Source: Gloeocapsa sp. DLM2.Bin57
GTDB lineage: Bacteria; Cyanobacteriota; Cyanobacteriia; Cyanobacteriales; Gloeocapsaceae
Length of the DNA: 32,368 bases
Assembly (NCBI GenBank): GCA_007693955.1
Contig: RECR01000051.1
Span: 1 to 32,368, forward strand
Direction of reading: 5' to 3'
Below the pieces are notes generated by a model. It ran no database searches, was not told where the DNA came from, and saw only the letters and a program-made list of their open reading frames with translations. A program made the translations under genes and the position numbers. Shown here piece by piece: positions 14,014-32,226 of the stretch. Position 1 is the first letter of the stretch, and each line of letters opens with the position of its first letter.

Positions 14014-15453
14014 TTATAATTCTAGAGCTTGTTTACCTTGACTTATAAGGGTACGTGCGTAATCAGTCCAAGCACCTTGTCCCCAATAGCGAAAACAACT
14101 AGTTTGAGAGAGAAGGTTATAGAGTAAAGCTTGTTGGTAAGCTGGTGTTTGTGTAATAGAGGGATTTTCCCTGACTAGGGGATCGTATTTTTGGTGAAAG
14201 AGAAAACTAAGTTCTTGCATCGGTGCGAGGACATTTTCATAACCTTGTACCCAGCTTAAATCATTAGTCCAGGAAGCGCCATCCATGTGAAAGCTACCAT
14301 CTTCTTTTTTAACTGCGGCGATCGCTTCTTCTACTGCTTGGGTAGTCACTTGTTCAAGGTTAACTCGTTGCCAAATTTTATGTTGATTAACTGCTTGACA
14401 TTGGGGATAATCTTCGGGTTTAACTCCCTTAGCGGTGAGTAATTCTAGGTATTCTGTACCGTTGATACCTGCTACTTCTCCTTGATTATTACCAATTTCT
14501 CGCCACACTCTGAGAAAATCTCTCGGGAATTCATTCATCATAACGCCCCCATTTTCCCCATCAGCGATTTGGGCTACGATAGAAGGCACATCTAAGTTAG
14601 CTATAGTTTGTTTAGGGAGTCCTTTAGCTTCAAAATAGGGTTGCATCTGACCGACTAATTTAGTGTCAGATCCTTGAGTTTTAATTAAAGCGGTGATAGT
14701 GATGGTTTCTCCTTGGGAATTACGGGCGATGAGGAGATTAGGGATATATTTCTGATGATGTTCTAGGGGTGTACCGTCTAAATGTTCTACAGAATGTTCT
14801 TGTACGAGTAACCAACGATAACCACAGTCTTTGAGGGCTTTGATATATTCATAGAGGGTATCGGGGTGGTTAGGTAGGTGCATTTCTGGTGGAGAAAAAC
14901 CGCGAACACGTCTTAAAGCGTCGTAACCGAATATACTAGCAAAATGATGTTGCCAAGCTTGTATGTGTAATTTGAGGTCTGGTATGGGGGTAGAGGGAGC
15001 GACAGCGTGACTCCACATTGTCCCTAGCCATTCTACATAGGGTTGATATTCTGGTTCACAGGTTATTTTTCTGAGGTTATTGAGGATATCTTCTCTACCC
15101 ATTTGTTCTAATCCCCAGAGTAAGTTACCCGAATAGTCGAGCATGATTCTTGGTTGACAACCTGAGGCTACTAACTCAGGGATAAATTCCCCCATCCTTC
15201 CATAACACCAAGCAAAGGTAGAGGCGTTATGATTGTCTCCTTGTTGGGAATGTTCAAACATATATTGGAGATTATTGATTAAGCCACCATCTTTACCCGC
15301 GGGAACTGTAGGCTGGTGCATATGTAGTGCGCAAGCGAAGGTTGCTGTTATTTTCTCCAGAGATAACTTAGTTTGGGGTAAAAAGATAGGTTGATCGTCT
15401 TGTCTGATGGCGTTAATTTTTGTTTCTTGACCAGAAATATTGGGGTAGTTCAT
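14014..15453 (-). CDS. GH57 family glycoside hydrolase / glucanotransferase
   Basis: The 479-residue protein shows GH57 landmarks: 'LHMHQPTVPAG' near residue 44, the nucleophile-region motif 'GFSPPEMHLP' with Glu, and 'DGENGGVMMNEFPRD' carrying the probable acid Asp. GH57 members are alpha-amylases, amylopullulanases, branching enzymes or 4-alpha-glucanotransferases that act on starch or glycogen. The exact activity here is uncertain because the N-terminal region and the length fit a separate cyanobacterial subgroup. There is no signal peptide, so it is probably cytoplasmic and acts on glycogen. It lies 18 bp behind trpE and 3 bp ahead of ycf49, in one likely operon. Confidence 0.85.
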   Translation of the reverse strand: MNYPNISGQETKINAIRQDDQPIFLPQTKLSLEKITATFACALHMHQPTVPAGKDGGLINNLQYMFEHSQQGDNHNASTFAWCYGRMGEFIPELVASGCQPRIMLDYSGNLLWGLEQMGREDILNNLRKITCEPEYQPYVEWLGTMWSHAVAPSTPIPDLKLHIQAWQHHFASIFGYDALRRVRGFSPPEMHLPNHPDTLYEYIKALKDCGYRWLLVQEHSVEHLDGTPLEHHQKYIPNLLIARNSQGETITITALIKTQGSDTKLVGQMQPYFEAKGLPKQTIANLDVPSIVAQIADGENGGVMMNEFPRDFLRVWREIGNNQGEVAGINGTEYLELLTAKGVKPEDYPQCQAVNQHKIWQRVNLEQVTTQAVEEAIAAVKKEDGSFHMDGASWTNDLSWVQGYENVLAPMQELSFLFHQKYDPLVRENPSITQTPAYQQALLYNLLSQTSCFRYWGQGAWTDYARTLISQGKQALEL

Positions 15454-17085: not shown

Positions 17086-17142
17086 TATATTTGAAATCAA
17101 ACCATTGATATTGGCATTATTGGGCAGCAGATTTTCGGATTA

Positions 17143-17399
17143 TTATGAAATTACCCAGAAACCAGATCTACGCCATTGTTGTTCTTTTAAAGCTTGTTGT
17201 AATTGTTCTTCACCAATCCAACCCAACTGAATCAGCATTTCCCCCAATCTTAGATTAGTATGCACTGAATCAGCATTTCCCCCAATCTTAGATTAGTATG
17301 CTCAGATAGAGATAGAGCATAGTCTAATTGATCTGTAGAAATCCAGCGCTTGTCAAGCATAATTTCACCGATTTTTAACATTTGCTTTAGCCCTCTCAT
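17143..17399 (-). pseudogene. Disrupted small MshEN/GspE-N-like protein gene
   Basis: From ATG 17399 the minus strand encodes MRGLKQMLKIGEIMLDKRWISTDQLDYALSL..., then stops after 49 residues because of an exact 38-bp tandem duplication (17226-17301). Removing one copy restores a single 72-residue frame that continues 'RLGEMLIQLGWIGEEQLQQALKEQQ' and ends at TAA 17145-17143. The pattern 'LKIGEIML...STDQLDYAL...RLGEMLIQLGWIGEEQLQQAL' is the doubled helical motif of the MshEN/GspE-N domain, which in PilB/MshE ATPases binds cyclic-di-GMP; here it stands alone. Translation may instead start at Met7 (17381). It is either a recent pseudogene, a reversible switch or an assembly artefact. Confidence 0.75.
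17226..17301. repeat. Exact 38-bp tandem duplication
   Basis: Two identical 38-bp copies lie back to back, 17226-17263 and 17264-17301, each beginning ACTGAATCAGCATTTCCCCC. The unit length is not a multiple of three, so it shifts the frame of the small minus-strand gene that contains it. No difference between copies is visible, which suggests it is recent. Confidence 0.97.
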
Positions 17400-17676
17400 A
17401 GTTTTTATGGTTTAAATATACATGATTTTAACTACAGGTTTAAGGGGCTGGATTTCGGAAAAATTTTTCCCAAAATCCAGAAAATTGTTTAAAGGATAAT
17501 ACCATGAGGTAAAATAATGCGTTACGCGGTAAGCACAAGTACTGTTATTGCACTCTTTATTTATATGGTTGTATCCTTAATTCTTTTCTACCACTGATGA
17601 AATGTCCTCAACCAGCATAAAATCATTTAGAATAAATGTACTGCTACTATTCTTGACATTTTAACTGTTTACTGCT
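17400..17676. other. Intergenic region between the broken gene and the STAND ATPase gene
   Basis: No credible gene is seen. The region holds a strong inverted repeat at 17448-17480 (listed separately). A candidate plus-strand promoter, TTGCAC (17548-17553) and TATCCT (17572-17577) with an 18-bp spacer, would give a leader of roughly 90 nt for the STAND gene. A perfect TTGACA at 17653-17658 is only 18 bp before the ATG and so is too close to serve as its -35. Confidence 0.4.
17448..17480. repeat. 33-bp inverted repeat
   Basis: CTGGATTT (17448-17455) pairs with AAATCCAG (17473-17480), and the centre is itself a palindrome, GGAAAAATTTTTCC. The whole could fold into one long hairpin or serve as a dimeric binding site. 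No U tract follows on either strand, so a simple terminator is not favoured. Confidence 0.7.
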
Positions 17677-20600
17677 ATGGAGACTTGCAAACCTTCTCTT
17701 CAGGGATTGAAAAAAATTAAAGAAGCTATCCATAAACTCCAACAAGAGAGAGGGTGGGCATTAGATGACGAAGGGTGGCTAGAAGAAGCTAGTAAATTTC
17801 TGCCACAACAAAATATCCATGGTAAGCTTATACAACAATCTGTATCACTTGGACCATGGAAAAGTTTTAGATCGGGCAAAAAAGGGATAAAAATTCGTTA
17901 TTTTAATGCTTTTTGCCGAATCTTAAATTTAGATCCCCAGGAGATTATTAACCAAGAAGAATCTAGTTGTTTATCTTCTCATCAAGATTGGGCTGACTCA
18001 CCTGATATCTTAACTTTTTTTGGACGAGAAAAAGAATTAACTACTCTGCAAAATTGGATTATTAATGATAATTGCCAACTAGTAGGAATTTTAGGAATTG
18101 GTGGTATTGGCAAAACTACACTATCAATGAAATTAATCAAGGGTAATCAAGAGATTCAATCAAGATTTAAATATATTGTTTGGCGATCACTTTTTAATGC
18201 TCCTCCCTTGACTGATCTTCTCAATGATTTAATTACCTTTCTTTCAGGACAACAAAAAAGTAATTTACCAGCTTCTATAGAACAACAAATCTTATTATTA
18301 TTACAATACCTGAAAAACGAACGTTGTTTATTAATTTTAGATAATTTTGATACCTTACTTGAGCATGATAATTACTCAAGAACCTATAAATCAGGATATG
18401 AAAATTATGATTATTTATTGCAAAAATTTGCTACAGTATCTCATCAAAGTTGTTTACTAGTTACTAGTAGAGAAAGATTACCTTATCTAGAACAATTCTC
18501 AGGATGTTTTCTACAACTAGAAGGTTTAGAATATATTCAAGCCAAGAAAATTTTACAGAAAATGGGTAATTTTGAGGGGTTAGAGGAAGATTGGCAAAGT
18601 CTGGTTAAATTATATAACGGTCATCCCCTAGCCTTACAATTAGCAGCTAGACATATTTTAGATGTTTTTAATGGCGATATTACATATTTTTTACATGAAG
18701 GTCAAACTATTTTTTATAGTATTAATTATTTATTAAATCAACATTTTAAGCGTCTATTACCTGAAGAAAAAGAGATTTTATATTGGTTAGCCATAAATAG
18801 AGAGCCAATCTCATTAGCAGAATTAAAGTCTCAAATAGTTTTAGTAAAAAATAAAAATAATTTATTTAATAATATTAATTCTTTGTATAATAAATTGTTG
18901 CTTAAAAACGTCGGTGATAAGCTGGAAATTGAACCTGTAATAATTGAATTTTTAACAGAGAAATTAATTGAAGAAATAGTAGAAGAGATTATTCAGCAAA
19001 AACTAGAAATTTTCAATACTCATGCTTTAGTGATAGTTCAAAGTAAAGAATATCTAGTCGATAGTCAAATTAGAATGATTCTTGAACCGATCAAACAAAT
19101 GCTAATTGACTATTTAGGTTCAATAAAACTTATAAATTATCTCAAGGAAATTTTAGCCAATGAACAAGAAAATTATCCTCTTAAACCAGGATATCTAGGG
19201 GGAAATATTTTTAACCTGTTACGTCAACTAAATGTAGATTGGAGAGGTTTTGATTTTTCTTATTTAACGATCAAACAAGCATATTTAGCGGATCAGAACT
19301 TATATAATATCAATTTTACTCATTGTGATCTATCAGATTCATTACTAAAACAAACTTTTAGTGGAGTTCATGCAGTAACATTTAGTCCTGATGGAAATAT
19401 TTTAGCAGTAGGAGATTCTCATGGTACAATTCGTTTAATCAGAATCGAAGACGGACAACAAATTAGTATTTTTCCGAAACAACATCAATGGTGGGTAGTA
19501 GCTTTAAGCTTTAGTCCCGATGGTGAAAGATTGGTCAGTGGTAGTTTAGACACGACAATTAAAGTTTGGGATCTTAAAACAGGTCAATGTCTTTACAAAT
19601 TAAATGATCATACTCAATGGATTTGGACAGTGACTTTTGGTCCTGACGGTAAAACCATAGCTAGTGGTAGTGATGATCAAACTATTAGACTTTGGGATGC
19701 TTCTACAGGAAAATGTAAGCAAATTTTACGAGGACATCAAGGTTGGGTTTTAGCGGTTGCTTTTAGTCGGGATGGTAAAACAATTGCTAGTGGAAGTTAT
19801 GATAAAACCATCAAAATTTGGGATCTTAAAACTGGTAAATGTCTGAAAACCTTATCAGGACATCAAGACGGCGTTTGGTCTGTTGTGTGGAGTCCTGATG
19901 GTGAAACAATCGCTAGTTGTGGTGGAGGTGAAACCACGATTCGCTTATGGTCTGTTAAAACAGAAAAATGTTACCGAATCTTAACAGGACACAATCAAGG
20001 GATTAAAGTTATAGGGATTACCCCAGACGGTAAAACCTTAGTTAGTGGTTGTCTTGAAGCAATTGTCAAGTTTTGGGATTTAGCAACAGGAGAATGTCGG
20101 GGGACTCTAAAAGGACATATTACGGGAATAAGAACCCTTGCTATTAGTCCTGATGGTAAAATCGCAGCAACAGGAGATAATGACCAGATCCTCAAGCTAT
20201 GGGATATTGACAAGAGAAAATGTCTCAAAACCTGGCAAGGATATATTAACTGGATTTGGTCAATGGCGATTAGTCCTGATGGTCAGACAATTGTTAGTAG
20301 TCATTTAGATCATAATATTAGGTTGTGGAATCATCCTACGGGAGAATATTTAACAACTTTAAAAGGACATACCGCTTGGATTTGGTCAGTAGCTTTTAGT
20401 ACAGATGGCAAAATAATTGCTAGTACTGGAGATGATCAAACTGTTAAACTGTGGGATAGCCAAACACATCAATTACTTAAGTCTTTAAAATATAATACTC
20501 AAGAATATCAAGGCGGGATTTGGGCGATCGCTTTTAGTCGAGATAATCTATATTTAGCTAGTGGAGGTCCTGAGACAACAATCAAGATTTGGGATGTTGC

Positions 20601-21231
20601 AACAGGAAATATACGGAGTTTCCCTGGACATCAAGGTTGGATTTTGGCAATTGCTTTTAGTCCTCAACAAAATATACTAGCTAGTGGGGGTGATGACCAA
20701 AGGGTCAAAATTTGGGATATTGTTAGTGAAGAATGTATCATGACTTTAGAGGGACACACCAATAAAGTGCGTTGTCTGAGTTTTAGTCCTGATGGCGATT
20801 TTCTAGTTAGTGGTGGTGAAGATAATACTATTAAAATTTGGGATCTTAGACAAGGAAGTTGTGTTGGGACTCTGATTGGACATCAAGATTGGGTTTACTC
20901 AGTCAGATTTAGTCCTGACAGTAAAATGATTCTCAGTAGTTCCAATGATGGTACTATTAAGCTTTGGGATATTAGTACTCAAGAATGTATCAAAACTTTA
21001 TCAGAACATTCTGGCGGGGTTGCTGCTGCTTTATTTACTCCTGAAGGTAAAACTATTATTAGTGGGAGTCATGATGGCACAATTAAATTTTGGGATGTAG
21101 ATAAGAAGGAATCTTTAAGAACTATCAGAGTACCAAGACCTTACGAGGGTATGAATATTACTGGGGTTCAGGGATTAACCGATAGTCAAAAAGAGTCCCT
21201 CAAAGCTTTAGGCGCAATTGATTATAAATAA
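17677..21231 (+). CDS. STAND ATPase: N-terminal helical domain, NB-ARC, pentapeptide-like stretch, 14 WD40 repeats
   Basis: The 1184-residue protein starts with a helical domain (about 1-95, 'LQGLKKIKEAIHKLQQERGW...PWKSFRSGKKGIKIRYFNAFCRILNLDPQEI') that resembles the HTH-like domain seen on other cyanobacterial NB-ARC proteins. The NB-ARC ATPase follows (about 110-370): 'FFGREKEL', Walker A 'GIGGIGKTT' near 140-148, Walker B 'CLLILDNFDTLL', 'LVTSRERLPYL' and the GLPL-like 'NGHPLALQLAA'. Residues of about 520-560 are pentapeptide-like (FDFSYLTIKQAYLADQNLYNINF). From about 562 to 1150 there are 14 WD40 repeats, enough for two seven-bladed propellers. The tail 'RPYEGMNITGVQGLTDSQKESLKALGA' is typical of this group. 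STAND proteins sense a ligand through the repeats and oligomerise; some act in defence or cell death. The trigger here is unknown. The 3' end overlaps treH by 10 bp. Confidence 0.93.
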   Translation: METCKPSLQGLKKIKEAIHKLQQERGWALDDEGWLEEASKFLPQQNIHGKLIQQSVSLGPWKSFRSGKKGIKIRYFNAFCRILNLDPQEIINQEESSCLSSHQDWADSPDILTFFGREKELTTLQNWIINDNCQLVGILGIGGIGKTTLSMKLIKGNQEIQSRFKYIVWRSLFNAPPLTDLLNDLITFLSGQQKSNLPASIEQQILLLLQYLKNERCLLILDNFDTLLEHDNYSRTYKSGYENYDYLLQKFATVSHQSCLLVTSRERLPYLEQFSGCFLQLEGLEYIQAKKILQKMGNFEGLEEDWQSLVKLYNGHPLALQLAARHILDVFNGDITYFLHEGQTIFYSINYLLNQHFKRLLPEEKEILYWLAINREPISLAELKSQIVLVKNKNNLFNNINSLYNKLLLKNVGDKLEIEPVIIEFLTEKLIEEIVEEIIQQKLEIFNTHALVIVQSKEYLVDSQIRMILEPIKQMLIDYLGSIKLINYLKEILANEQENYPLKPGYLGGNIFNLLRQLNVDWRGFDFSYLTIKQAYLADQNLYNINFTHCDLSDSLLKQTFSGVHAVTFSPDGNILAVGDSHGTIRLIRIEDGQQISIFPKQHQWWVVALSFSPDGERLVSGSLDTTIKVWDLKTGQCLYKLNDHTQWIWTVTFGPDGKTIASGSDDQTIRLWDASTGKCKQILRGHQGWVLAVAFSRDGKTIASGSYDKTIKIWDLKTGKCLKTLSGHQDGVWSVVWSPDGETIASCGGGETTIRLWSVKTEKCYRILTGHNQGIKVIGITPDGKTLVSGCLEAIVKFWDLATGECRGTLKGHITGIRTLAISPDGKIAATGDNDQILKLWDIDKRKCLKTWQGYINWIWSMAISPDGQTIVSSHLDHNIRLWNHPTGEYLTTLKGHTAWIWSVAFSTDGKIIASTGDDQTVKLWDSQTHQLLKSLKYNTQEYQGGIWAIAFSRDNLYLASGGPETTIKIWDVATGNIRSFPGHQGWILAIAFSPQQNILASGGDDQRVKIWDIVSEECIMTLEGHTNKVRCLSFSPDGDFLVSGGEDNTIKIWDLRQGSCVGTLIGHQDWVYSVRFSPDSKMILSSSNDGTIKLWDISTQECIKTLSEHSGGVAAALFTPEGKTIISGSHDGTIKFWDVDKKESLRTIRVPRPYEGMNITGVQGLTDSQKESLKALGAIDYK

Positions 21232-22745
21232 TCAAATAAAGCTAATAATTCCAAGAATACACCATTAGTCCAACCGAAGCCAATCTCATTAGTATTGTAG
21301 CCATAATAAATAGCTTCGGAGACGTCAGAAGAACAACGGGAAACGTCGTATTTTTCTAAGATAACTCCCGTTTTCTCAAATTCTTGTCTAACTAGATTAA
21401 GAAACTTATTAGCTAGACGTTGGGCATCTTCATGATAACCGTAGTTACGTAAACCTTCGATCGCGAATAATTGTAACGGGGCCCAACCAAAAGGGGCATC
21501 CCATTGATTCCCAGAAACGTAGTTACTAGTTAGTAAACCCCCATTAGCTTCTAATCTACATAAATTTTCTCTCAAGCGTTTAGCTTGTTCATCAGAAGCT
21601 ACATTAGCCCATAGAGGCATAAAAGTAGTAGCAAATTCGTAACAACGTCTTCTCCCTGTACGGAAATTATAGTCAAAGTACATCCCTTTTTCTTCATCCC
21701 AGAGAAACTCGTCGATAAGTTTTTGACGATGTTGAGAATTACTTAACCAATATTCGGCGATATCTTCATGTCCTAAAATTTGGTGGATCAAGGCGATATC
21801 TTTTTCCATTTGGTAGAGTAAGACATTGAGACAAACAGGGGCGTAGTGGATAATATCGACGCTAAATGGACCAAAACGATTACTAATATCGAAACCTGAC
21901 TCACGCATAGAGCGATCGCCTTGATAGAATAAGTCTGTGAGGGTATCTTCTTCGCGATTATAGTATAGGTCTAGGTCGTAGTCTTCTACCTCAGCAACTC
22001 CTTGATAATATCGTAAGACTCTATCATAGTGAGTCAAACCCTGTTCGTCTTTTTCAGAGTCAACTACTTCAGGGGCAGGTCCTGTACCCAAGGCGTTATA
22101 ATGTGATAATCCCGTAGTAGGGTTAAGATGGGGGGGAACAGTCCAATAAAAGTAATAAGCTTCGATAGTTGGTAATAGAGACCTTAGCCAATCTAAATCT
22201 GAATTAGACTCAAATACTCGTAAAACTGTACGACTAAACAAGGGAGGATGGGAACGATTGAGCATATAACTCCGATTCCCATTGAGTATAGTACCATAAT
22301 GCTTGACTTGATAACCCAACAGATCTGCCATATTTTGGGCTAGGGTATATTCATGATCTCTGAGTAAACCCAAGACGATAAAATAGCTATCCCAACCGTA
22401 CATTTCATTAAATCTTCCTCCTGGTACAACATAATCTAGGGGAAGATAGAGTAACCCATGTTCTCTGATTTGGTCAATCTCAGGAGGTAGGGTACGTATT
22501 TCTATGTGGCTAAATTTTTCTGGGGTGACTATTTCCTTGATTTTATATTTAATCTCATCGAGGTTTTCTTGACCTGAAACATAGACTATCCAGGGTTCAC
22601 CTGGTAATTTTTCTATTTTAGGGTCTTTGGCTGCTTGGATGATGTATTCTGGAGTACGAGTTAGGGTTTTCCATGTCTGCTTGATATATTCTCTAACTGC
22701 TAGGATTTCTTGGGAATTGATATCTATGGTAGGCTGAGTGAGCAT
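21222..22745 (-). CDS. treH: Trehalase (GH37)
   Basis: TreH splits trehalose into two glucoses. The 507-residue protein carries both GH37 signatures: 'PGGRFNEMYGWDSYF' from residue 108 and 'QWDAPFGWAPLQ' near 415. The probable catalytic acid is the Asp in 'RESGFDISNRF' and the base is the Glu in 'ILEKYDVSR'. No signal peptide is visible, so it should act in the cytoplasm. The ATG abuts the treY stop with no gap, so translation is coupled. The gene order treZ-treY-treH matches the cluster known in Nostoc/Anabaena. Placing the degrading enzyme last may keep its level low relative to synthesis. Confidence 0.92.
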   Translation of the reverse strand: MLTQPTIDINSQEILAVREYIKQTWKTLTRTPEYIIQAAKDPKIEKLPGEPWIVYVSGQENLDEIKYKIKEIVTPEKFSHIEIRTLPPEIDQIREHGLLYLPLDYVVPGGRFNEMYGWDSYFIVLGLLRDHEYTLAQNMADLLGYQVKHYGTILNGNRSYMLNRSHPPLFSRTVLRVFESNSDLDWLRSLLPTIEAYYFYWTVPPHLNPTTGLSHYNALGTGPAPEVVDSEKDEQGLTHYDRVLRYYQGVAEVEDYDLDLYYNREEDTLTDLFYQGDRSMRESGFDISNRFGPFSVDIIHYAPVCLNVLLYQMEKDIALIHQILGHEDIAEYWLSNSQHRQKLIDEFLWDEEKGMYFDYNFRTGRRRCYEFATTFMPLWANVASDEQAKRLRENLCRLEANGGLLTSNYVSGNQWDAPFGWAPLQLFAIEGLRNYGYHEDAQRLANKFLNLVRQEFEKTGVILEKYDVSRCSSDVSEAIYYGYNTNEIGFGWTNGVFLELLALFDYL

Positions 22746-25520
22746 CTAACGACTTATAAGTAAGGCTACAGGGAATTGGGTTAGGATTTTTCCTAGTTGC
22801 AGTTTACTGCTATGGGGTAGCGATCGCTTAGTTAAAACATCTAGCCATTCGCTAACATTGTTATTAGTTAATTCTAAAATAGTATCTTGCCAAACTGCTG
22901 TACCTAGAGGTATTTTTCCTGGTTCTACCAAGGTAGCGTAAAATCTGGGTACAACGATCAAAGCGTTGGTTTTTCCTGACTTTCTTTGAAAAGCGATGAC
23001 ATTGTCTGAATATGTTCCTGAAACATTAACGGGTGTATAATCCCCTTGTTGAAAGATTTCTTGATATTCTGCTAACGCTGTTAAGGTTTGATGAATCAGA
23101 TATAATTTTACTCTGCCATCTGTGCTATATTCGAGCAGATTGTCGAGTAAATTAGCTATATCTTCTTCTTTTGCTTGTTGTAATTGTTCTAACTCGTGGA
23201 GACGCTGATTATAATCTACCGGACGACGGTTATCAGGATCTACTAAACTGAGATCCCACATTTCCGTACCTTGATAGATATCGGGTACACCAGGACAAGT
23301 TAACTTTAACAGAGTTTGAGATAGAGAGTTTAAGATACCATAATGGGCTATTTTCTCCCCAAAAGTGCGTAAACTAGCTAAAAACTTATTATCTGGTTCA
23401 TCGGTTAATAATTTCTCGACAAAGGTTACGAAATTGTTCTCATATTCTGTGTCGGGATGTAACCAACCTGTATGGACTTTAGCTTCTCTGACTGCTTTAA
23501 TGACGTATTCTTTAATTCTCGTGATCAACTCTTGATGGTTATATGGTTCAAAAGGTAAGGAACCTACTAGATTCTGATAGAGAAAATATTCGTCATTGCT
23601 ATCTAAGGTAATGGGATTATCGAGATCTTGTTTATATTGTTCATTCATTTTTTGCCAAGTAATGACTTGAGTTTGCCATTCTTGGGGTATTTCTGAGAGA
23701 ACATTGATTCTTGCTCTGACATCTTCACTTCTTTTGGTATCATGAGTAGATGAGGTATTGAGAGAATGGGGCCAATAATTAACTTGTTGTTGGTTAAAAC
23801 TATGAAATTCTGATACTGTTACTCCAAAGTTATGAGGCGCTCCTCCTACCTCGTTGAGAGATACTAAAGGATTATAGATATAGAATAAGGTATCTTCTAC
23901 ACCTTTTGCCATTAAAGGTCCAGAGAATTGCTGCATCTTCATCACCCAATGCAATCTCTGTTCTTTTTCTGTCTCGGTAAGATCTTCTATCCCTCTTAAT
24001 AAGAATAACTCTTCAATAAAGTTTAGTTCGTTAATTAGTTGGGGGTTATTACGTTTGGCTGTTTGAATGACTCTGATGACATAGGTACGATAACGTTCGT
24101 TTACTCCTTCGCTGGTAATATAAGTACGATAGATGGGAAATAGTACTAAGATTTCTACGATCGCTCTACGTATCCCACTCAGGGTAAAATCACGAGTAGA
24201 ACGATATCCACTAGCTATTTCTTTAAGCATATTAGCGAGGTTTTCTACGTCTCCTGCTAAATTGCGATCGGCGATTAAGCGTTTACAGGCTATTTCTTTA
24301 TTTTCGTAACTTTCCCATTGTCCTGTAAAGTGGCGATAGATTTGTAAAAATTCGTTTTCGTTGGCTTTTTGACAGAATAACCCATTGAGATAATAGAGGA
24401 ATTCGTAACCTGATGTTCCTTGTACTGGCCAATCTTCCGGTAAGGTTTCTCCGTGTTGGAGGATCTTCTCCACTATTACATATGTACGACCTATATACTT
24501 ACGCAGTCTTTCTAGGTATTCTTTGGGGTTATAGAGTCCATCGATGTGATCAATCCGCAAACCTGTAAATTGATTAGTTTCTACTAATTGTTGGATGAGT
24601 TGATGAGTTTGTTCAAATACTGCTAATTTCTCGATACTAACGCAAATAAGCTCATTTACGGTAAAAAAGCGCCGATAATTTAGTTCTTCTGCGCCAACTT
24701 TCCAAAAGGAGAGGCGAAAGTATTGTAAGGAGAGTAAATTATCTAAAAGTTCGTAATTTTGATTAAATAATTCGATATTCTCACTAATAAACTCGTTAAT
24801 TACTGAGTTAGACTCAAATAATTCCCAGAGTAAAGTCTTACTAAAAGCGATCTGAGTTTTATATTGTTGGGGATTTTCAATATTACTAGCATTTTTGAGG
24901 AGATAAACGATCCCCAAAAATTTAATATATTCGGGGTGTTTTGCTTCTAGTTTTGTTGCTAATCTTTCTAAATCATAGGTAACTACTTCTAGATATGATT
25001 CTATTCTTAAGGGAAAATTAAGGTCATAATAACTGACAAACATTCCTTGGTCAAAATATTTTAACTTCAGTTCCCCTCTTTCTAAACAGTTACCGTAGAA
25101 ATCTCCTAATAAGGGGGCTAAGACTTTGCCCTGGAGATCACGATAGGGGTGTTCCCATTGAATATCAAAAAACTCATAGTATTCTGATTTAGGACCATAG
25201 GCTAGTACATCCATAAGTAGGTTATTTTCGGTATGATAAGCCATATGATTGGGGACAATGTCTTGTAACCACCCCATATCCTGTTCTTGTAAAATCTGAT
25301 TGAGATATTCAAATTCTGCTTGAGTACCGATTTCGGGGTTCAGTTGATTATAATCGACTACGTTATAACCGTGAGTACTTCCTGTACAAGCTTTAAAAAT
25401 AGGAGAAGCGTATATATCTGATATCCCTAATTTTTGTAGGTAGGGTATGATATTTTGGGCATCTTGGAATTGAAAGCTAGCGTTAAATTGCAGACGATAG
25501 GTAGCAGTTGGAATACGCAT
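22746..25520 (-). CDS. treY: Malto-oligosyltrehalose synthase
   Basis: TreY converts the reducing end of a maltodextrin into a trehalose unit by intramolecular transglycosylation. The 924-residue length is normal for this GH13 subfamily. It begins 'MRIPTATYRLQFNASFQFQDAQNIIPYLQKLGISDIYASPIF', the standard TreY start. It shows 'DIVPNHMAYH', the nucleophile Asp in 'GLRIDHIDGLYNP' (near residue 323), the acid Glu in 'YVIVEKILQHGE' and 'TSSTHDTKRSEDVRAR'. 'GVPDIYQGTEMWDLSLVDPDNRRPVD' completes the C-terminal signature. It lies 13 bp behind treZ and abuts treH. Confidence 0.96.
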   Translation of the reverse strand: MRIPTATYRLQFNASFQFQDAQNIIPYLQKLGISDIYASPIFKACTGSTHGYNVVDYNQLNPEIGTQAEFEYLNQILQEQDMGWLQDIVPNHMAYHTENNLLMDVLAYGPKSEYYEFFDIQWEHPYRDLQGKVLAPLLGDFYGNCLERGELKLKYFDQGMFVSYYDLNFPLRIESYLEVVTYDLERLATKLEAKHPEYIKFLGIVYLLKNASNIENPQQYKTQIAFSKTLLWELFESNSVINEFISENIELFNQNYELLDNLLSLQYFRLSFWKVGAEELNYRRFFTVNELICVSIEKLAVFEQTHQLIQQLVETNQFTGLRIDHIDGLYNPKEYLERLRKYIGRTYVIVEKILQHGETLPEDWPVQGTSGYEFLYYLNGLFCQKANENEFLQIYRHFTGQWESYENKEIACKRLIADRNLAGDVENLANMLKEIASGYRSTRDFTLSGIRRAIVEILVLFPIYRTYITSEGVNERYRTYVIRVIQTAKRNNPQLINELNFIEELFLLRGIEDLTETEKEQRLHWVMKMQQFSGPLMAKGVEDTLFYIYNPLVSLNEVGGAPHNFGVTVSEFHSFNQQQVNYWPHSLNTSSTHDTKRSEDVRARINVLSEIPQEWQTQVITWQKMNEQYKQDLDNPITLDSNDEYFLYQNLVGSLPFEPYNHQELITRIKEYVIKAVREAKVHTGWLHPDTEYENNFVTFVEKLLTDEPDNKFLASLRTFGEKIAHYGILNSLSQTLLKLTCPGVPDIYQGTEMWDLSLVDPDNRRPVDYNQRLHELEQLQQAKEEDIANLLDNLLEYSTDGRVKLYLIHQTLTALAEYQEIFQQGDYTPVNVSGTYSDNVIAFQRKSGKTNALIVVPRFYATLVEPGKIPLGTAVWQDTILELTNNNVSEWLDVLTKRSLPHSSKLQLGKILTQFPVALLISR

Positions 25521-25533
25521 TAGTTATTTTTAT

Positions 25534-27357
25534 TTATTTTTGTTTAGAATAGACAGCGACGGTTAAACCTGTTATGTTCACTTCAAGGTTATTAATGCTG
25601 TCGGGAAGGGTTGAACCTGGACCTAAATAAGCTTTTATTGACGAATCTAACTGTTTTTGCCAGTTTCCTGGGGGAAGTTGCGGAATTTTTACCCCTTGTT
25701 GATTAAAGTTTAGCAAGATTAGTACAGATTCTGTGTCTTGATTCCGCGTGAAATAAAACCAGCGTTCCTGTTCGTCATACTCTACTTTAACACTATCTCT
25801 AGCGTAGTTACGCAAGGGTGTCAACTTTTTCCGCAATTCTAGGAGTTTTTGGTAAAATTTGAGTAAAACAGCGTGATTTCCTGTTTCTCTAAGTTTCCAA
25901 TTCAAACGCGATCGCTGCAAAGTTTCTACACTAGCGGGATCTGGAGGCTCTCCCAACCATTTAAATGAGGCGAATTCTCGTTTACGTCCTGCTTGTACGG
26001 CTTTAACTAGGTCGGGATCACCGTGACTGATAAAGTAGTAAAATGGGGCTGTTTCGCCGTATTCTTCCCCCATAAATAACATGGGTATTCCAGGACCTGT
26101 AAGGGTTAAAGCGGCGGCTAATTTAAGACCATCAAAGGAAATTAAGCTACTAAGACGATCGCCTAACATTCTATTTCCTACTTGGTCATGATTTTGACTA
26201 TAGATTAAAAATTGACTAAAAGGGCGATCGCCTATTTTATTGCCGTGATACCGTTGACGATAGGGGGAATAATCCCAAGTATAAGTAAAACTCTCGGTGA
26301 AAGCCTTAGCTAAATCTGCACATTTGCCATAATCTTGATAATAGCCTTGGTTTTCTCCTGTCAAGAGAGTATGAATACAGTGGTGAACATCATCACACCA
26401 TTGCGCTGCTAAACCGTATCCTCCTTGAGTGGTTGGGTTAATGATCCTCGCGTCGTTTAAGTCACTTTCAGCGATTAAATAGACTGGTTTTCCTGTTTCC
26501 TTGGTAAATTCGTTTACTCGCTCTTGCATTTCGGCTAAGATATGTTTAGCGCCAAAATCGTAGATAGCGTGAATCGCGTCTAAGCGCAAACCATCTAGAT
26601 GATATTCTTTGAACCAGTACAAGACGTTTTCAATGAAGAAATTACGCACCCCATAACTATAAGCGTCGTCAAAGTTGAGAGCTTTACCCCAAGGGGTGTT
26701 ATATCTATCGGTAAAATAGGGGGCGAAATCTTGAGTATAGTTTCCTTCAGGTCCTAAATGATTATAAACTACATCGAGAATGACAGCTATTCCCTGTTGG
26801 TGACAAGCGTCTATTAATTGTTTGAATCCTTCTACTCCTCCATAGGAATGTTGCACAGCGAAGGGATACACTCCATCGTAACCCCAATTTCTACTCCCAG
26901 GAAACTGAGCTACAGGCATAATTTCTAGACAGTTAATCCCTAATGCTTTTAACTCCTCTAAATGGGGGATAATCCCTGTAAATGTACCCTCAGCACTAAA
27001 TGCCCCTACATGTAATTCATAGATAATTAACTCTTCTAGGGGGAGATTTTGCCAACTGCTATCGTTCCACTCAAAAGCTGTATGATCGATAACCTGGGAT
27101 GGTCCGTGTACATCAAGAGGTTGACTATGGGATACGGGATCTGGTCTAGTTTTTTCGCCACCATTTAGCTGATACTGGTACAAAGTTCCTGGGGGTATCT
27201 CTGTAGCAGTAATTCGCCAGTAGCCTAACTCGTCTTGTGTCAGTGGTATGACCCGTTCTGAATCTCCCAGGATTTTAACTTCTATTTGTTTAAGGTTTGG
27301 GGCCCAAACGGTAAATTCACAATGGTTATTCTTGAGATAATTTGCTCCAATTCGCAT
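25534..27357 (-). CDS. treZ: Malto-oligosyltrehalose trehalohydrolase
   Basis: TreZ releases free trehalose from the TreY product. The 607-residue protein has an N-terminal CBM48-like beta domain (about 1-90, 'CEFTVWAPNLKQIEVKI'). The GH13 barrel shows 'YELHVGAFSAEGTF', 'VVYNHLGPEGNY', the nucleophile Asp in 'GLRLDAIHAI' (near residue 260), the acid Glu in 'LIAESDLNDARI' and the 'SQNHDQVGNR' His-Asp pair. 'GPGIPMLFMGEEYGE' follows. It is the first gene of the tre unit, 50 bp downstream of the glutaredoxin gene, with a GC-rich hairpin in the gap. The cluster points to trehalose as a drought or salt protectant. Confidence 0.96.
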   Translation of the reverse strand: MRIGANYLKNNHCEFTVWAPNLKQIEVKILGDSERVIPLTQDELGYWRITATEIPPGTLYQYQLNGGEKTRPDPVSHSQPLDVHGPSQVIDHTAFEWNDSSWQNLPLEELIIYELHVGAFSAEGTFTGIIPHLEELKALGINCLEIMPVAQFPGSRNWGYDGVYPFAVQHSYGGVEGFKQLIDACHQQGIAVILDVVYNHLGPEGNYTQDFAPYFTDRYNTPWGKALNFDDAYSYGVRNFFIENVLYWFKEYHLDGLRLDAIHAIYDFGAKHILAEMQERVNEFTKETGKPVYLIAESDLNDARIINPTTQGGYGLAAQWCDDVHHCIHTLLTGENQGYYQDYGKCADLAKAFTESFTYTWDYSPYRQRYHGNKIGDRPFSQFLIYSQNHDQVGNRMLGDRLSSLISFDGLKLAAALTLTGPGIPMLFMGEEYGETAPFYYFISHGDPDLVKAVQAGRKREFASFKWLGEPPDPASVETLQRSRLNWKLRETGNHAVLLKFYQKLLELRKKLTPLRNYARDSVKVEYDEQERWFYFTRNQDTESVLILLNFNQQGVKIPQLPPGNWQKQLDSSIKAYLGPGSTLPDSINNLEVNITGLTVAVYSKQK

Positions 27358-28692: not shown

Positions 28693-31600
28693 ATGCCTAA
28701 TCAAGACTTAATTTTCAATATCTTAGCACTTAGGGTGAACAGCTTTATCTCTTTAGTCAATTCTGAAGAGGGATGGTTGATTAGTTTAATCGTAGTCTTA
28801 TTAGCGGGAATATCCCTAGGTTTGGGACAGGGAATCATTCTTTTTGTCAGTCGGGTTAAACCTTGGCGCTTTGTTTTTAGTATCTTAGTCAACGCGATTT
28901 TATTTACTTTTGGCTTTTTATTCCTGGTTTTTAGCGTTTGGCTTAATTGTCAAATCCCCTGGTGGTCATTATCTATCCCCTTTGCTAGTTTAGTACAGGT
29001 ATTGGGTGTAAGTTATGCTCCCCAATTGTTTAGTTTTACCGGTGCTTTACCTTATCTAGGTGTACCGATTCTGTCGTTGTTATCGGTATGGCGACTGTTA
29101 GCTATGGTTGTGGGTTTTAGTGCTGTAGCAGGAGTTGATCTAGCTGAATCTTTTCGTTATGTAATTATCGGTTGGCTAATTTTACAACTGTTAGAAAATA
29201 CCCTAGGTAAACCCATTACTAGCTTTGGGAGAAAAGTCTCTAATCATGTGGCTGGTACAGAATTACCCAGAAATAGAAAACAAGTCAAACGAGCCATTCG
29301 TAACGAAATAGACTCTATAGTTAACTCAGATCAGCACAACTCAGACCTATCTTTAAATCAAGCTAGAATCAATAATTCTCATCAACAGCTAAAAGTAATT
29401 AAACAACAAGATACCAGACTAGATGCAAAAATCCTAAGTTTATTAGGTATGTTGCTGTTGTTAATAGTAATTACACTAGCTTTAAGTCCTTTATATCGAG
29501 GGTTTTTAGCTTGGCAAGATAATTTACCTGACTTATTCAAACTAATATTTGACCTGGGTTGGATTGGTTTAATTGCTACGGTATTCGCGGGATTTTTAGC
29601 ACCTTTAGAAACCCTGGGTTGGTGGGCTGGTTGGTATGGAGATGATTTAGAAGTACAAGCTCAAACTGAAGAGATAACCGAAGAGAATAACTATGATGGC
29701 TATGTTATCTATTTAGATGGTATTGGTCAATCGGGATCTCAATATACTCCTGATGTAGAAAACTTTTTAGAAGAATTAAAAACAGCTATTCCGAGAAATT
29801 ATAAACTGATCAAGGGTTTAATGATGTATTCAGTACTCAATAAACCCCTAGATGAAGATCGCCCTTTAGCTTTTTTCTGGAAAATAGTAGATAACATGCG
29901 TATCGCTAATCCTCAAGCTATTTTGGGGATAATTTTAAACCTACGCAATGTGTTTATTGTAGCTGTTTCTGCCGACCAACGCTATGGACCAATTTATAAT
30001 CTTGGTATAGCGCAAACATTATATAACGGGTTAGTTAAAGAAGGATATCAAAGGGGGACACCAATTACTCTGATTGGTTATAGTGGGGGAGGTCAAATGT
30101 CTGTAGCGGTTGCTCCCTATCTGAAAAAGGCTATGAGTGCTCCTGTAGATGTGATTTCCCTTGGGGGTGTAATGAGTGCTAACAACAACTTGTTGGATTT
30201 AGAACAGTTATATCATCTGGTGGGTGATAAAGATTCTGTAGAAAGAATTGGACCTGTGATGTTTCCTGGTCGTTGGCGCATTTTTCCCTTATCTTATTGG
30301 AATCGTGCTAAACGTAGAGGTAATATCAGTATTCTATCTCTAGGACCTGTGGGACATCAAGTACCTGGGGGAATGATGGATGATCAAGCTTATTTAGAAG
30401 ATGGAAGAAGTTATTTAACACAAACGATTGAGATTATTATTAAGATTCTGGAAGGGGTAGCTTTACCTGGAGAAAATTTACCCATTCGTACTGTCAGTAA
30501 TTATGAACGCTATCAACAAGCTAGTTGGATACAACCTGATAGTTATCCACTGATTCAACAAGTAGATACTAATCTTTATCATCCTGTGGGAGATTGGGTA
30601 GGTCGTTTGATCTTACCAAGTTTATCAGAACGTAAACAGGTTCAGGGTGCTTGGTTTGAGATCTATTCTGCTCCTAGTGAATATCAGCATTTAATCGGTA
30701 CAAGGGTAAAGTTACGGGAAAGTGATGACCCTTTTATACAAACATGGGTTAAAACTGTGACTAGAGATGTCCATTTTAGCGGTGAGGCTGAATATACGGC
30801 TAAATATGGCGGTTTAATTCATCCTCTCCGTCTCAATCATTGGCTTAGGGTTAATCCCATTGAATCTTTAGCTGGATCTCGTCCTTATGATGACGTCGTG
30901 GTTACTATCTCTGCTGATGATCTAGAAGTCAGGGGGGATTGTTTATATATTTCCCAAGAATTGATTCAAGTTACGGGACGTTTTTACGCTTTGGTGCGTT
31001 TTTTAGCTCCTTTGGGGGATAATCTCTGGAAAGTACAACATTTTGACCCTAATTCTCGCAGTTTTACAGGCTCTGTAGAAGTGGTGAGTCTTCCTGAAGT
31101 TATTCCCGATGGTAATGATTGTTATCCCTCTACTAGTAAAGGGTTAGAAAAGTCTCCTCTTAATGAGCAGGGATGGTATATCTATGGGAGCAAAAATGCT
31201 CAAAATGTCTTTGTGGTGATGTCTTTCATTCCTCGGGTTTTGCTAAAACTTGAACCACAGTCTCTGATTAATGATGTTAAACAGGGTTATCGTTTTATTC
31301 GAGAACAATCTTGGCAAAATGAGATCGCACCTAAAGGTAAAATTGGCTCGGTTTTGATTAGTGGTGAGGGACAAAATTGGCAAGAAGGCGATCGCGCTTT
31401 GGTGATTCACGTCTATGGGGGAATTGGTGGTAATAAACGTGAACCAGCTGCTGCTACACCAATATTTTTTGGTCATTTTGCTTATGGTTTAGCCACGGTA
31501 ATCAAAGAACCTCTCACGGGTGAGTTACGCTTTGATATAGTTTATGATCAGGTCTATACTCACAATACTGATGGTTTAATTGCGGGTCAATTACACTGGT

Positions 31601-32226
31601 CTAGATATATGGGCGATCGCCAGTTTGGTTGGATGGGAACTCGTCCTGTTTGTGATTTGTTGATTAAGTTTGAACCCTTTACTGGTTACTATAATCTAGA
31701 TGGACAGTTGGTGTCTCCTTTAGACTATATGTTACTGCAATTAAACGTGATGACGGCTCGTTATCGCATCGGAGATGGTACGGGAGGAACTTATGTAGGA
31801 CCTGCTAATAATTGTGCTCAAGACTCTAATCAGGCTTTATTTGCTAGTATTGAGTATATTTATCGCCTTATGGGCCAAAATCCTGAGATTGAAAAGGCTT
31901 TAATCCGCGATAATCCCCAACAAGCTTTCGCTTTAACACAATTACAAGAACTTAAAAAAGACTTAAAAAATATCCTCGAGCCTTTCGGAAGACCTCGATC
32001 TGACTGGGAAAATAATCAGTTTAATCTCGGAAGTACTCTGGAAGATAGACCTCTAGCTAATCTCTGGTATGGTTTGAGAAGTTGGCGTACGATGTTTCCC
32101 CGTTATGCTAGTGATAGTATCGTCCGTGTCTTCTTAAAATATGGTGCTCAAGTGTGGGTATTGCGCACTAATCAGATTGGTGGTAATGACCCCGATATTG
32201 AGGCGATCGCTCCGATTACTTTTTAA
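28693..32226 (+). CDS. Large membrane protein with alpha/beta-hydrolase-like domain and C-terminal His/Cys domain
   Basis: The 1177-residue protein has an N-terminal membrane region (about 1-180, five hydrophobic segments) and two more helices near 250-310. The next region has an alpha/beta-hydrolase pattern: 'YVIYLDGIGQSG', the nucleophile elbow 'GYSGGGQ' with Ser464, Asp512/Asp514 in 'VGDKDSV' and His555 in 'VGHQVPGG'. The C-terminal part contains 'FFGHFAYGLATV' (His928) and 'YVGPANNCAQDSNQALF' (Cys1041). The His-before-Cys order with Asn-Cys is like permuted papain-fold enzymes (LRAT, YiiX, DUF4105). I recall a cyanobacterial family of this length sometimes labelled Abi/CAAX protease, but no CPBP motif is evident. 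The function is unknown, plausibly lipid or peptide hydrolysis at a membrane. Confidence 0.75.
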   Translation: MPNQDLIFNILALRVNSFISLVNSEEGWLISLIVVLLAGISLGLGQGIILFVSRVKPWRFVFSILVNAILFTFGFLFLVFSVWLNCQIPWWSLSIPFASLVQVLGVSYAPQLFSFTGALPYLGVPILSLLSVWRLLAMVVGFSAVAGVDLAESFRYVIIGWLILQLLENTLGKPITSFGRKVSNHVAGTELPRNRKQVKRAIRNEIDSIVNSDQHNSDLSLNQARINNSHQQLKVIKQQDTRLDAKILSLLGMLLLLIVITLALSPLYRGFLAWQDNLPDLFKLIFDLGWIGLIATVFAGFLAPLETLGWWAGWYGDDLEVQAQTEEITEENNYDGYVIYLDGIGQSGSQYTPDVENFLEELKTAIPRNYKLIKGLMMYSVLNKPLDEDRPLAFFWKIVDNMRIANPQAILGIILNLRNVFIVAVSADQRYGPIYNLGIAQTLYNGLVKEGYQRGTPITLIGYSGGGQMSVAVAPYLKKAMSAPVDVISLGGVMSANNNLLDLEQLYHLVGDKDSVERIGPVMFPGRWRIFPLSYWNRAKRRGNISILSLGPVGHQVPGGMMDDQAYLEDGRSYLTQTIEIIIKILEGVALPGENLPIRTVSNYERYQQASWIQPDSYPLIQQVDTNLYHPVGDWVGRLILPSLSERKQVQGAWFEIYSAPSEYQHLIGTRVKLRESDDPFIQTWVKTVTRDVHFSGEAEYTAKYGGLIHPLRLNHWLRVNPIESLAGSRPYDDVVVTISADDLEVRGDCLYISQELIQVTGRFYALVRFLAPLGDNLWKVQHFDPNSRSFTGSVEVVSLPEVIPDGNDCYPSTSKGLEKSPLNEQGWYIYGSKNAQNVFVVMSFIPRVLLKLEPQSLINDVKQGYRFIREQSWQNEIAPKGKIGSVLISGEGQNWQEGDRALVIHVYGGIGGNKREPAAATPIFFGHFAYGLATVIKEPLTGELRFDIVYDQVYTHNTDGLIAGQLHWSRYMGDRQFGWMGTRPVCDLLIKFEPFTGYYNLDGQLVSPLDYMLLQLNVMTARYRIGDGTGGTYVGPANNCAQDSNQALFASIEYIYRLMGQNPEIEKALIRDNPQQAFALTQLQELKKDLKNILEPFGRPRSDWENNQFNLGSTLEDRPLANLWYGLRSWRTMFPRYASDSIVRVFLKYGAQVWVLRTNQIGGNDPDIEAIAPITF

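What the first reader, a model, noticed from the sequence alone, without database searches (positions are those of the whole stretch)
17677..21231. Large NB-ARC/WD40 STAND sensor with an unassigned N-terminal domain
The protein has an intact ATPase, 14 WD repeats and a conserved C-terminal tail, but its N-terminal effector or HTH-like domain is uncharacterised. STAND ATPases of this plan in bacteria include antiphage and cell-death sensors. It stands alone without a linked toxin or nuclease.
Basis: partly seen in the sequence, partly recalled or inferred. Interest (0 to 1): 0.6.

Follow-up and report, generated by a model that had tools for sequence, protein, structure and literature searches.

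The report
Apaf-1-like cyanobacterial switch with DNA-binding head
A large cyanobacterial protein built like the animal death-switch Apaf-1 carries, where the death domain would be, what looks like a DNA-binding head, so it is more likely a signal-controlled gene regulator than a phage-killing toxin.

Summary
ORF 17677-21231 encodes 1184 aa with an intact NB-ARC ATPase, a winged helix, 14 WD repeats modelled as two 7-bladed propellers, and a conserved tail. The "unassigned" N-terminus is a cyanobacterial family with no Pfam match; its model resembles Cro/C1 (lambda-repressor-like) helix-turn-helix domains (Z 6.5, moderate). In 60 sampled relatives of the NB-ARC, the N-terminal slot is helix-turn-helix-like in 59 (several classes, sorted by eye with Pfam support for many) and EAD4 in one. 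Genes with the window-type domain carry GATCAG-type half-sites upstream, often 11 bp apart: CAAGATC in 27 of 60 upstreams against 20 of 454 controls. A 22-base box searched in 388 genomes hit 8 places, 6 upstream of a gene with this domain. The window keeps only a degenerate box (16 of 23 identical to its closest sampled homologue's; 1 of 542 controls as good). No defence neighbours or toxic effector were found. Best reading: an AfsR/MalT-type STAND regulator with Apaf-1-like architecture that binds DNA, probably at its own promoter. DNA binding, ligand and regulon are untested; antiphage function is unsupported, not excluded. The NB-ARC type is common (99 of 146 class genomes).

The parts
17677..21231 (+). 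STAND protein, 1184 aa: HTH - NB-ARC - winged helix - helical arm - 14 WD repeats - conserved tail
17695..17970 (+). N-terminal Cro/C1 (lambda-repressor-like) HTH, aa 7-98, with a beta-hairpin (about 44-53) between helices 2 and 3
   Evidence: AlphaFold model pLDDT 86.6; VIA Z 6.5 to lambda cI, 5.8 to SinR; weak profile hits to HTH regulators E 0.46-1.3
18028..18642 (+). NB-ARC ATPase, aa 118-322
   Evidence: Pfam PF00931 E 1.1e-13
18094..18117 (+). P-loop GIGGIGKT, aa 140-147
   Evidence: the G, K and T positions are invariant or nearly so in 29 proteins
18328..18345 (+). Walker B LLILDN, aa 218-223
18679..18927 (+). winged-helix region, about aa 335-417 (assigned from predicted secondary structure and position)
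19351..20205 (+). first 7-bladed WD40 propeller, aa 559-843
20245..21102 (+). second 7-bladed WD40 propeller, aa 857-1142
21136..21228 (+). conserved C-terminal tail RPYEGMNITG...LKALGA, aa 1154-1184
17636..17658 (+). degenerate operator-like box ATGTACTGCTACTATTCTTGACA, 18 nt before the ATG
   Evidence: 16 of 23 identical to the box of homologue L198/L201 (24 nt before its ATG); 1 of 542 control upstreams reaches 16; aligned together by MAFFT. GATC cores lost
17448..17480 (.). 33-bp near-palindrome CTGGATTTCGGAAAAATTTTTCCCAAAATCCAG in the upstream intergenic stretch; candidate operator or hairpin, weak
   Evidence: one place in own genome, none in G001 and G002; 11 of 200 shuffles as good

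Best explanation
A STAND-class, signal-controlled DNA-binding regulator. The two WD40 propellers hold the NB-ARC closed. An unknown ligand or protein bound by the propellers, with ADP-to-ATP exchange, opens it and makes it multimerise. Multimerisation brings several N-terminal Cro/C1-type HTH heads together, and the cluster binds an array of half-sites spaced by about one DNA turn near its own start codon, so the switch state is read out as gene expression. Shown here: architecture, motifs, HTH-like fold prediction, the upstream motif in relatives and its degenerate trace here. Inferred: DNA binding itself, ATP-driven multimerisation (from MalT and AfsR), sign of regulation, ligand, other targets.
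For: (1) N-domain model looks Cro/C1-like: Foldseek top lambda cI and SinR (E 0.38-0.40), VIA Z 6.5 and 5.8, most listed rows being HTH repressors; profile search independently lists SinR, 3tyr and PezA (E 0.46-1.3). (2) The slot holds HTH-like modules: of 60 N-termini sampled I sort 36 as sigma-r4/vMAP-like, 6 window-type, 15 in two other Cro/C1-like classes, 2 LuxR and 1 EAD4; Pfam on these plus the window at E<=0.1 gives HTH_26 in 16, HTH_31 in 15, Sigma70_r4_2 in 12, HTH_3 in 10, GerE in 3, EAD4 in 1 of 61. (3) Upstream motif: CAAGATC 27/60 vs 20/454 controls; GATC 2.08 vs 0.74 per 250 bp, 11-bp spacing in 20 of 73, 34-bp in 12 of 73. It also precedes short NB-ARC versions, so it follows the N-domain. 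(4) Pattern test in 388 genomes: 6 of 8 hits precede an N-domain gene. (5) Window box 16/23 at the matching place. (6) Upstream gene divergent in 30 of 33 fused relatives vs 312 of 798 controls.
Against: Fold scores are below the tool's caution line (Z under 8) and Foldseek E is not significant; lambda-repressor-like folds also serve as protein-binding modules (RodZ and Mbf1/EDF1 appear). Median net charge of the first 95 residues is only +1, window +3. The window lacks GATC in its 250 bp upstream and departs from near-invariant T60 and R63 of the predicted recognition helix. Across relatives, recognition-helix type does not predict motif presence (p 0.40). The motif is absent from about half of relatives (55 of 105 have it). 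Class C upstreams have GATCAG in 3 of 10, so specificity against other HTH classes is shown only for class A (2 of 31). One of 60 slots is EAD4, an adaptor, not an HTH. The motif could serve RNA rather than DNA, though no Rfam family matches. The 8-hit pattern set overlaps genomes and homologues already used.
Confidence: 0.66

Rival explanations
1. The N-terminal domain is an HTH-derived adaptor (EAD-like) that recruits a separate effector protein on activation, as CARD does in Apaf-1; the protein is a cell-death or antiphage sensor whose effector is encoded elsewhere.
For: Architecture closest to full-length Apaf-1 after a Nostoc propeller. One of 60 N-terminal slots is EAD4, E 5.9e-36. The N-domain also precedes TRADD-like_N/HEAT/DUF1822 in L053, and L103 has a CHAT gene downstream. 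Short versions sit before Ser/Thr-kinase and/or WD40 genes in 19 of 47 loci.
Against: EADs should recur in the genome on effectors; the window genome has a single copy. No TIR, caspase or nuclease domain fused to the N-domain in the members scanned by Pfam. Upstream DNA motif follows the N-domain. No defence neighbourhood.
Confidence: 0.2
2. Antiphage STAND (Avs-like): the propellers sense a phage protein, and the protein kills or arrests the cell.
For: General plan of bacterial STAND defence proteins (passages of PMC10907252); patchy presence (36 of 60 relatives, many by linker-only matches); three plasmid records.
Against: No effector enzyme; PADLOC only hits WD40 repeats through a HEAT-ARM model; no defence genes nearby; the NB-ARC type is in 99 of 146 class genomes, with up to 16 copies, which fits a regulator repertoire as well.
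Confidence: 0.08
3. Diverged or decaying copy: the gene is intact but its operator and recognition helix have drifted, so it is no longer a working regulator.
For: GATC cores gone; T60P, R63S and a 4-residue insertion in helix 1; absent next to the trehalase in two congeners.
Against: Full ORF without a stop, all ATPase motifs, 14 repeats and tail intact; the closest sampled homologue shares the helix-1 insertion and keeps the operator.
Confidence: 0.06

Closest known systems
AfsR (Streptomyces coelicolor), STAND transcription activator
   Same: N-terminal DNA-binding module, NOD ATPase, C-terminal sensor repeats; AfsR binds two 11-bp direct repeats overlapping the -35 element, NOD/TPR inhibition is relieved by ATP, and a Ser/Thr kinase acts on it (passages of PMC10936776). 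Relatives here show 11-bp spaced half-sites and kinase genes downstream of short versions.
   Different: AfsR has an OmpR-type HTH plus BTA and TPRs; here a Cro/C1-like HTH and 14 WD repeats. NCBIfam AfsR model: E 0.26, 9.1 bits against a cut-off of 1430. DNA binding untested here.
MalT (E. coli), STAND archetype regulator
   Same: STAND switch read out as transcription (abstract of PMC6468293).
   Different: MalT has a TPR sensor and, as recalled, a C-terminal LuxR HTH.
Apaf-1 (animal apoptosome)
   Same: NB-ARC, winged helix and two WD40 propellers in one chain; full-length Apaf-1 is the next Foldseek match after 2ymu (E 1.8e-51).
   Different: CARD in Apaf-1 replaced by an HTH-like domain; 7+7 blades against 7+8 (recalled).
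Npun_R6612 (WRAP) STAND of Nostoc punctiforme
   Same: STAND with 14-blade double propeller (passages of PMC9218822); propeller structure 2ymu, by recall this protein, is the top match, 40% identity.
   Different: Its gene is coupled to a TIR-STAND gene; not seen here. Its N-terminus was not compared.
Cyanobacterial sigma70 proteins with NB-ARC, WD40 or AAA_35 accessory domains
   Same: Transcription modules joined to the same accessory domains (passages of PMC11119718).
   Different: Sigma domains instead of a Cro/C1-like HTH.

Membership tests
STAND / NB-ARC (AP-ATPase) | P-loop, Walker B, sensor-1 arginine, GxP, followed by winged helix | tested here: met
   Pfam E 1.1e-13; motifs; winged helix from model
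STAND transcription regulators (AfsR/MalT kind) | DNA-binding domain in the same chain as the NOD | tested here: inconclusive
   HTH-like fold, Z 6.5, HTH-type slot in relatives; binding not tested
STAND transcription regulators (AfsR/MalT kind) | Repeated operator sites at target promoters | tested here: inconclusive
   Met in relatives by statistics; window only a degenerate box
STAND transcription regulators (AfsR/MalT kind) | ATP-dependent multimerisation and transcription effect | not testable with these tools
   needs biochemistry
AfsR/SARP family proper | Matches the curated AfsR model (OmpR-type DNA-binding domain plus BTA) | tested here: not met
   NF053617 9.1 bits vs cut-off 1430; no Pfam match in residues 1-128
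Apaf-1 / apoptosome | NB-ARC with two WD40 propellers | tested here: met
Apaf-1 / apoptosome | N-terminal CARD | tested here: inconclusive
   No Pfam match; model resembles Cro/C1 HTH; CARD not compared directly
Effector-associated domain (EAD) recruiter | Same domain repeated in the genome, also on effectors | tested here: not met
   one copy at E<=1 in own genome
Known antiphage STAND systems | Match to a PADLOC model through the NTPase or effector | tested here: not met
   only PDLC02919 through the WD40 region
Known antiphage STAND systems | Protection against phage | not tested

The most novel reading that the evidence does not exclude
Cyanobacteria hold a large, unrecognised repertoire of Apaf-1-shaped transcription switches: one NB-ARC/WD40 chassis whose N-terminal slot is swapped among several HTH classes, each class with its own operator, and which exists fused or split into HTH-NTPase plus a WD40/kinase partner gene (an AfsR/AfsK-like pair). 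The apoptosome-type machine would here be a gene regulator with a half-site code (GATCAG, 11-bp steps) that can be read from sequence.
Probability: 0.4. Interest if true: 0.66.

Novelty: new variant of a known kind. Interest (0 to 1): 0.5.

Why it matters
NB-ARC/WD40 proteins of this type occur in 99 of 146 sampled genomes of the class, with up to 16 copies, and are easily taken for immune sensors by analogy. If the head is a DNA-binding HTH with a recognisable operator, their output becomes testable by binding and reporter assays even before the ligand is known. It would also place an Apaf-1-like architecture in transcription control, as MalT and AfsR do for other STAND plans. Ten searches of the held open-access library showed no description of this N-domain or its motif; only listings, abstracts and passages were seen, and subscription papers are not covered.

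Tried and rejected
Antiphage island: window neighbours (ten proteins) and relatives' neighbours (82 proteins from 22 of 33 fused loci, the other 11 near-duplicates left out) gave no defence cluster. Of 46 matching PADLOC families only 25 were shown, none with more than 2 members; those shown are mostly kinase-type models (my reading). Phage or viral origin: no phage record for the N-domain; for the whole protein two weak WD40-region hits; IMG/VR scan 6 pattern stretches, none confirmed. Known RNA element: none in the window except a tRNA, none at 13 element-bearing loci. Recognition-helix residues versus motif presence: not significant, p 0.40. Transfer of the Nostocales inverted repeat (CCAAGATCAGTT, arms 34 bp apart, one place per genome in 10 of 18 genomes) to the window: single arms with up to 3 mismatches are scattered over the window, none as a pair upstream of the gene. 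PWM scan of the window upstream with 23 boxes: 31 of 540 controls score as well; only the CTTGACA part is kept. The 33-bp near-palindrome is weak (11 of 200 shuffles). Profile-profile comparison of the window-type N-domain with class C gave probability 14% and with class A no alignment, so the HTH classes are not shown to be homologous. PDB profile searches of class A and C alignments gave no significant match; their HTH assignment rests and on reading the sequences. VIA of the full-length model is dominated by propellers; CARD-like folds do not appear in the N-domain lists, which excludes nothing. Controls for motif counts are upstreams of other ORFs in the same loci, found mechanically, so some starts are wrong; deduplication was by shared 12-mers.
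Full report
WHAT IS THERE. The window is contig C51 of a 3.45 Mb genome; I take it as cyanobacterial because the named relatives are. ORF 17677-21231 (+) encodes 1184 residues. Pfam gives NB-ARC at aa 118-322, E 1.1e-13, and WD40 repeats. All core ATPase motifs are present. AlphaFold with a 29-row alignment gives mean pLDDT 81.7: N-terminal helical domain, NB-ARC, winged helix, helical arm, two 7-bladed propellers, short tail helix. The best Foldseek matches are the double propeller 2ymu and then full-length Apaf-1.

THE N-TERMINAL DOMAIN. No Pfam family matches residues 1-128. The domain family is real: 21 rows (the window and 20 of the loci) align with invariant G26, S57, W61, F64, G67, C80 and L83, and a scan of the GTDB-based collection of 84,980 species genomes confirmed 126 relatives, 80 kept, all from records titled as cyanobacteria (the seed was cyanobacterial). 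Its model (65 rows, pLDDT 86.6) has the helix order of Cro/C1 domains with an extra hairpin before the recognition helix. Lambda cI gives Z 6.5 over 78 residues at 3.0 A and SinR 5.8; Foldseek ranks the same two first, with E 0.38 and 0.40. Profile search of the PDB lists HTH regulators among the weak top hits. Each score is modest; together they point to Cro/C1-type HTH.

THE SLOT. To see what this NB-ARC type carries at its N-terminus I took every second listed match among the first 120 or so (99 of 146 genomes matched; one pick was replaced because it lay at a contig edge) and fetched 60 N-termini. By sequence I sort them into a sigma-region-4/vMAP-like class (36), the window type (6, one of them a looser relative), two further Cro/C1-like classes (12 and 3, one of the 3 with a guanylate cyclase behind the HTH), LuxR type (2) and EAD4 (1). 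Pfam at E<=0.1 on these 60 plus the window finds HTH families in many of them and EAD4 once; it returns counts per family, not the union, so the 59 of 60 HTH-like figure rests partly on my reading. What XRE, LuxR and sigma region 4 share is DNA binding, which is why I read the slot as DNA-binding. The EAD4 case shows that the slot can also take an adaptor. Cyanobacterial sigma factors with NB-ARC, WD40 and AAA_35 accessory domains are in print (PMC11119718, passages).

THE UPSTREAM MOTIF. Aligning intergenic regions of fused relatives showed an inverted repeat, CCAAGATCAGTT / AACTGATCTTGG, arms 34 bp apart. In 18 genomes searched (19 loci named, one not held), 10 had it, exactly one place each. 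Without choosing the word beforehand, the top 7-mer over 250-bp upstreams is CAAGATC: 27 of 60 deduplicated relatives against 20 of 454 controls. GATC sites are 2.08 against 0.74 per upstream; 11-bp spacing occurs in 20 of 73 and 34-bp in 12 of 73, while the most frequent control spacing occurs in 5 of 481. The motif precedes both fused and short NB-ARC genes, so it follows the N-domain. Genes with the class A head have GATCAG in 2 of 31, class C in 3 of 10. CTTGAC lies 20-40 nt before the start in 29 of 100 relatives and 4 of 540 controls. As a test, the 22-base box was searched with up to 2 mismatches in 388 genomes: 8 places, 6 of them 22-133 nt upstream of an ORF that begins with this N-domain, 2 not (L196, L199). 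Some of those genomes had been seen before, so the test is not fully independent.

THE WINDOW'S OWN PROMOTER. There is no GATC in its 250 bp upstream. Its closest sampled homologue (L198/L201, 41.7% identical over residues 1-1181, sharing the helix-1 insertion) has TGATCTGAAAATGATCTTGACA 24 nt before its start. The window has ATGTACTGCTACTATTCTTGACA 18 nt before its own: 16 of 23 identical, reached by 1 of 542 control upstreams. Both GATC cores are changed, and the window also departs at T60 and R63 of the predicted recognition helix; I read this as drift of site and head together, which is inference from one case and not supported by the family-wide test. A 33-bp near-palindrome at 17448-17480 is unique in the genome but weak against shuffles.

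NEIGHBOURHOOD AND DISTRIBUTION. The gene is single in its genome. In two congeners the trehalase is kept but its neighbour is different: PsaA/PsaB in one and a DUF4915/glycosyltransferase/TPR protein in the other. One congener has an N-domain on a protein without a STAND domain that I can see. In the 80 loci, 33 are fused to WD40; none of these is followed by a WD40 or kinase gene, whereas 19 of the other 47 are. In one search, 18, 17 and 15 of 32 fused loci have an HTH-AAA_35, a ParA/MinD-like and a PNPOx-like gene nearby, usually as a divergent operon; phylogenetically these are not independent. The upstream gene is divergent in 30 of 33 fused loci, 28 of 39 short ones and 312 of 798 control genes.

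MECHANISM. STAND proteins with WD40 or TPR sensors are held closed by sensor-NOD contacts and multimerise with ATP (abstract of PMC6468293). In AfsR, NOD and TPR inhibit transcription activation, ATP binding relieves this, and DNA recognition is through two 11-bp direct repeats overlapping the -35 element (passages of PMC10936776). The same logic fits here: propellers sense, NB-ARC switches, clustered HTH heads read half-sites one helical turn apart. The steps shown are anatomy and motif statistics; the rest is inference. Whether the box activates, represses or acts in RNA is open; in several relatives TTGACA lies so close to the ATG that it can hardly be the -35 of a promoter for the annotated start.

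RIVALS AND VERDICT. An adaptor reading (CARD-like recruitment) remains at about 0.2 because of Apaf-1 likeness, the EAD4 case and kinase or CHAT neighbours of some short relatives. Direct antiphage function has no positive evidence here. The finding is a new variant of a known kind: a STAND regulator plan with an HTH family for which I found no description, and a predicted operator.

Noticed in passing
window 17100-17399 (- strand): Small frame (MLKIGEIMLDKRWISTDQLDYALSLSEHTNLRLGEMLIQ...), resembling by recall the N-terminus of PilB/GspE-type ATPases, broken by a perfect 38-bp tandem duplication at 17226-17301.
   Followed up: partly
window 28693-32226 (+): 1177-aa ORF without any Pfam, NCBIfam or PADLOC match.
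   Followed up: no
window 21222-27357 (-): Trehalase followed by two alpha-amylase-fold proteins, by recall a treH-treY-treZ cluster, converging on the STAND gene with a 10-base overlap.
   Followed up: partly
window 14014-15453 (-): 479-aa ORF between a DUF2499 gene and the TrpE-like gene with no Pfam match.
   Followed up: no
L063, L068, L069, L070 and other fused Nostocales loci, upstream of the STAND gene: Divergent conserved operon of a PNPOx-like, a coiled-coil-looking, a ParA/MinD-like and an HTH-AAA_35 gene shares the intergenic region with the single-copy inverted repeat; a candidate regulon.
   Followed up: partly
L181 and L136: One relative has a Cro/C1-like HTH plus guanylate cyclase before NB-ARC; another has EAD4 in the slot (assignment of EAD4 to L136 is my reading).
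   Followed up: no
L122, L123 and L167 upstream regions: Direct repeats at about one or two helical turns (GGTTCAGTTTT every 11 bp; GGTTATGCCTT about every 21 bp) instead of GATC sites, seen by eye in the output.
   Followed up: no
L053, L103 and L202: The N-domain on non-STAND proteins: with TRADD-like_N, HEAT and DUF1822 (L053), before a CHAT gene (L103), and with an unassigned C-terminus in a congener (L202).
   Followed up: partly
AP018278.1, AP017376.1, NZ_CP091914.1: Plasmid copies of proteins with this N-domain in Calothrix, Stanieria and Nostoc.
   Followed up: no
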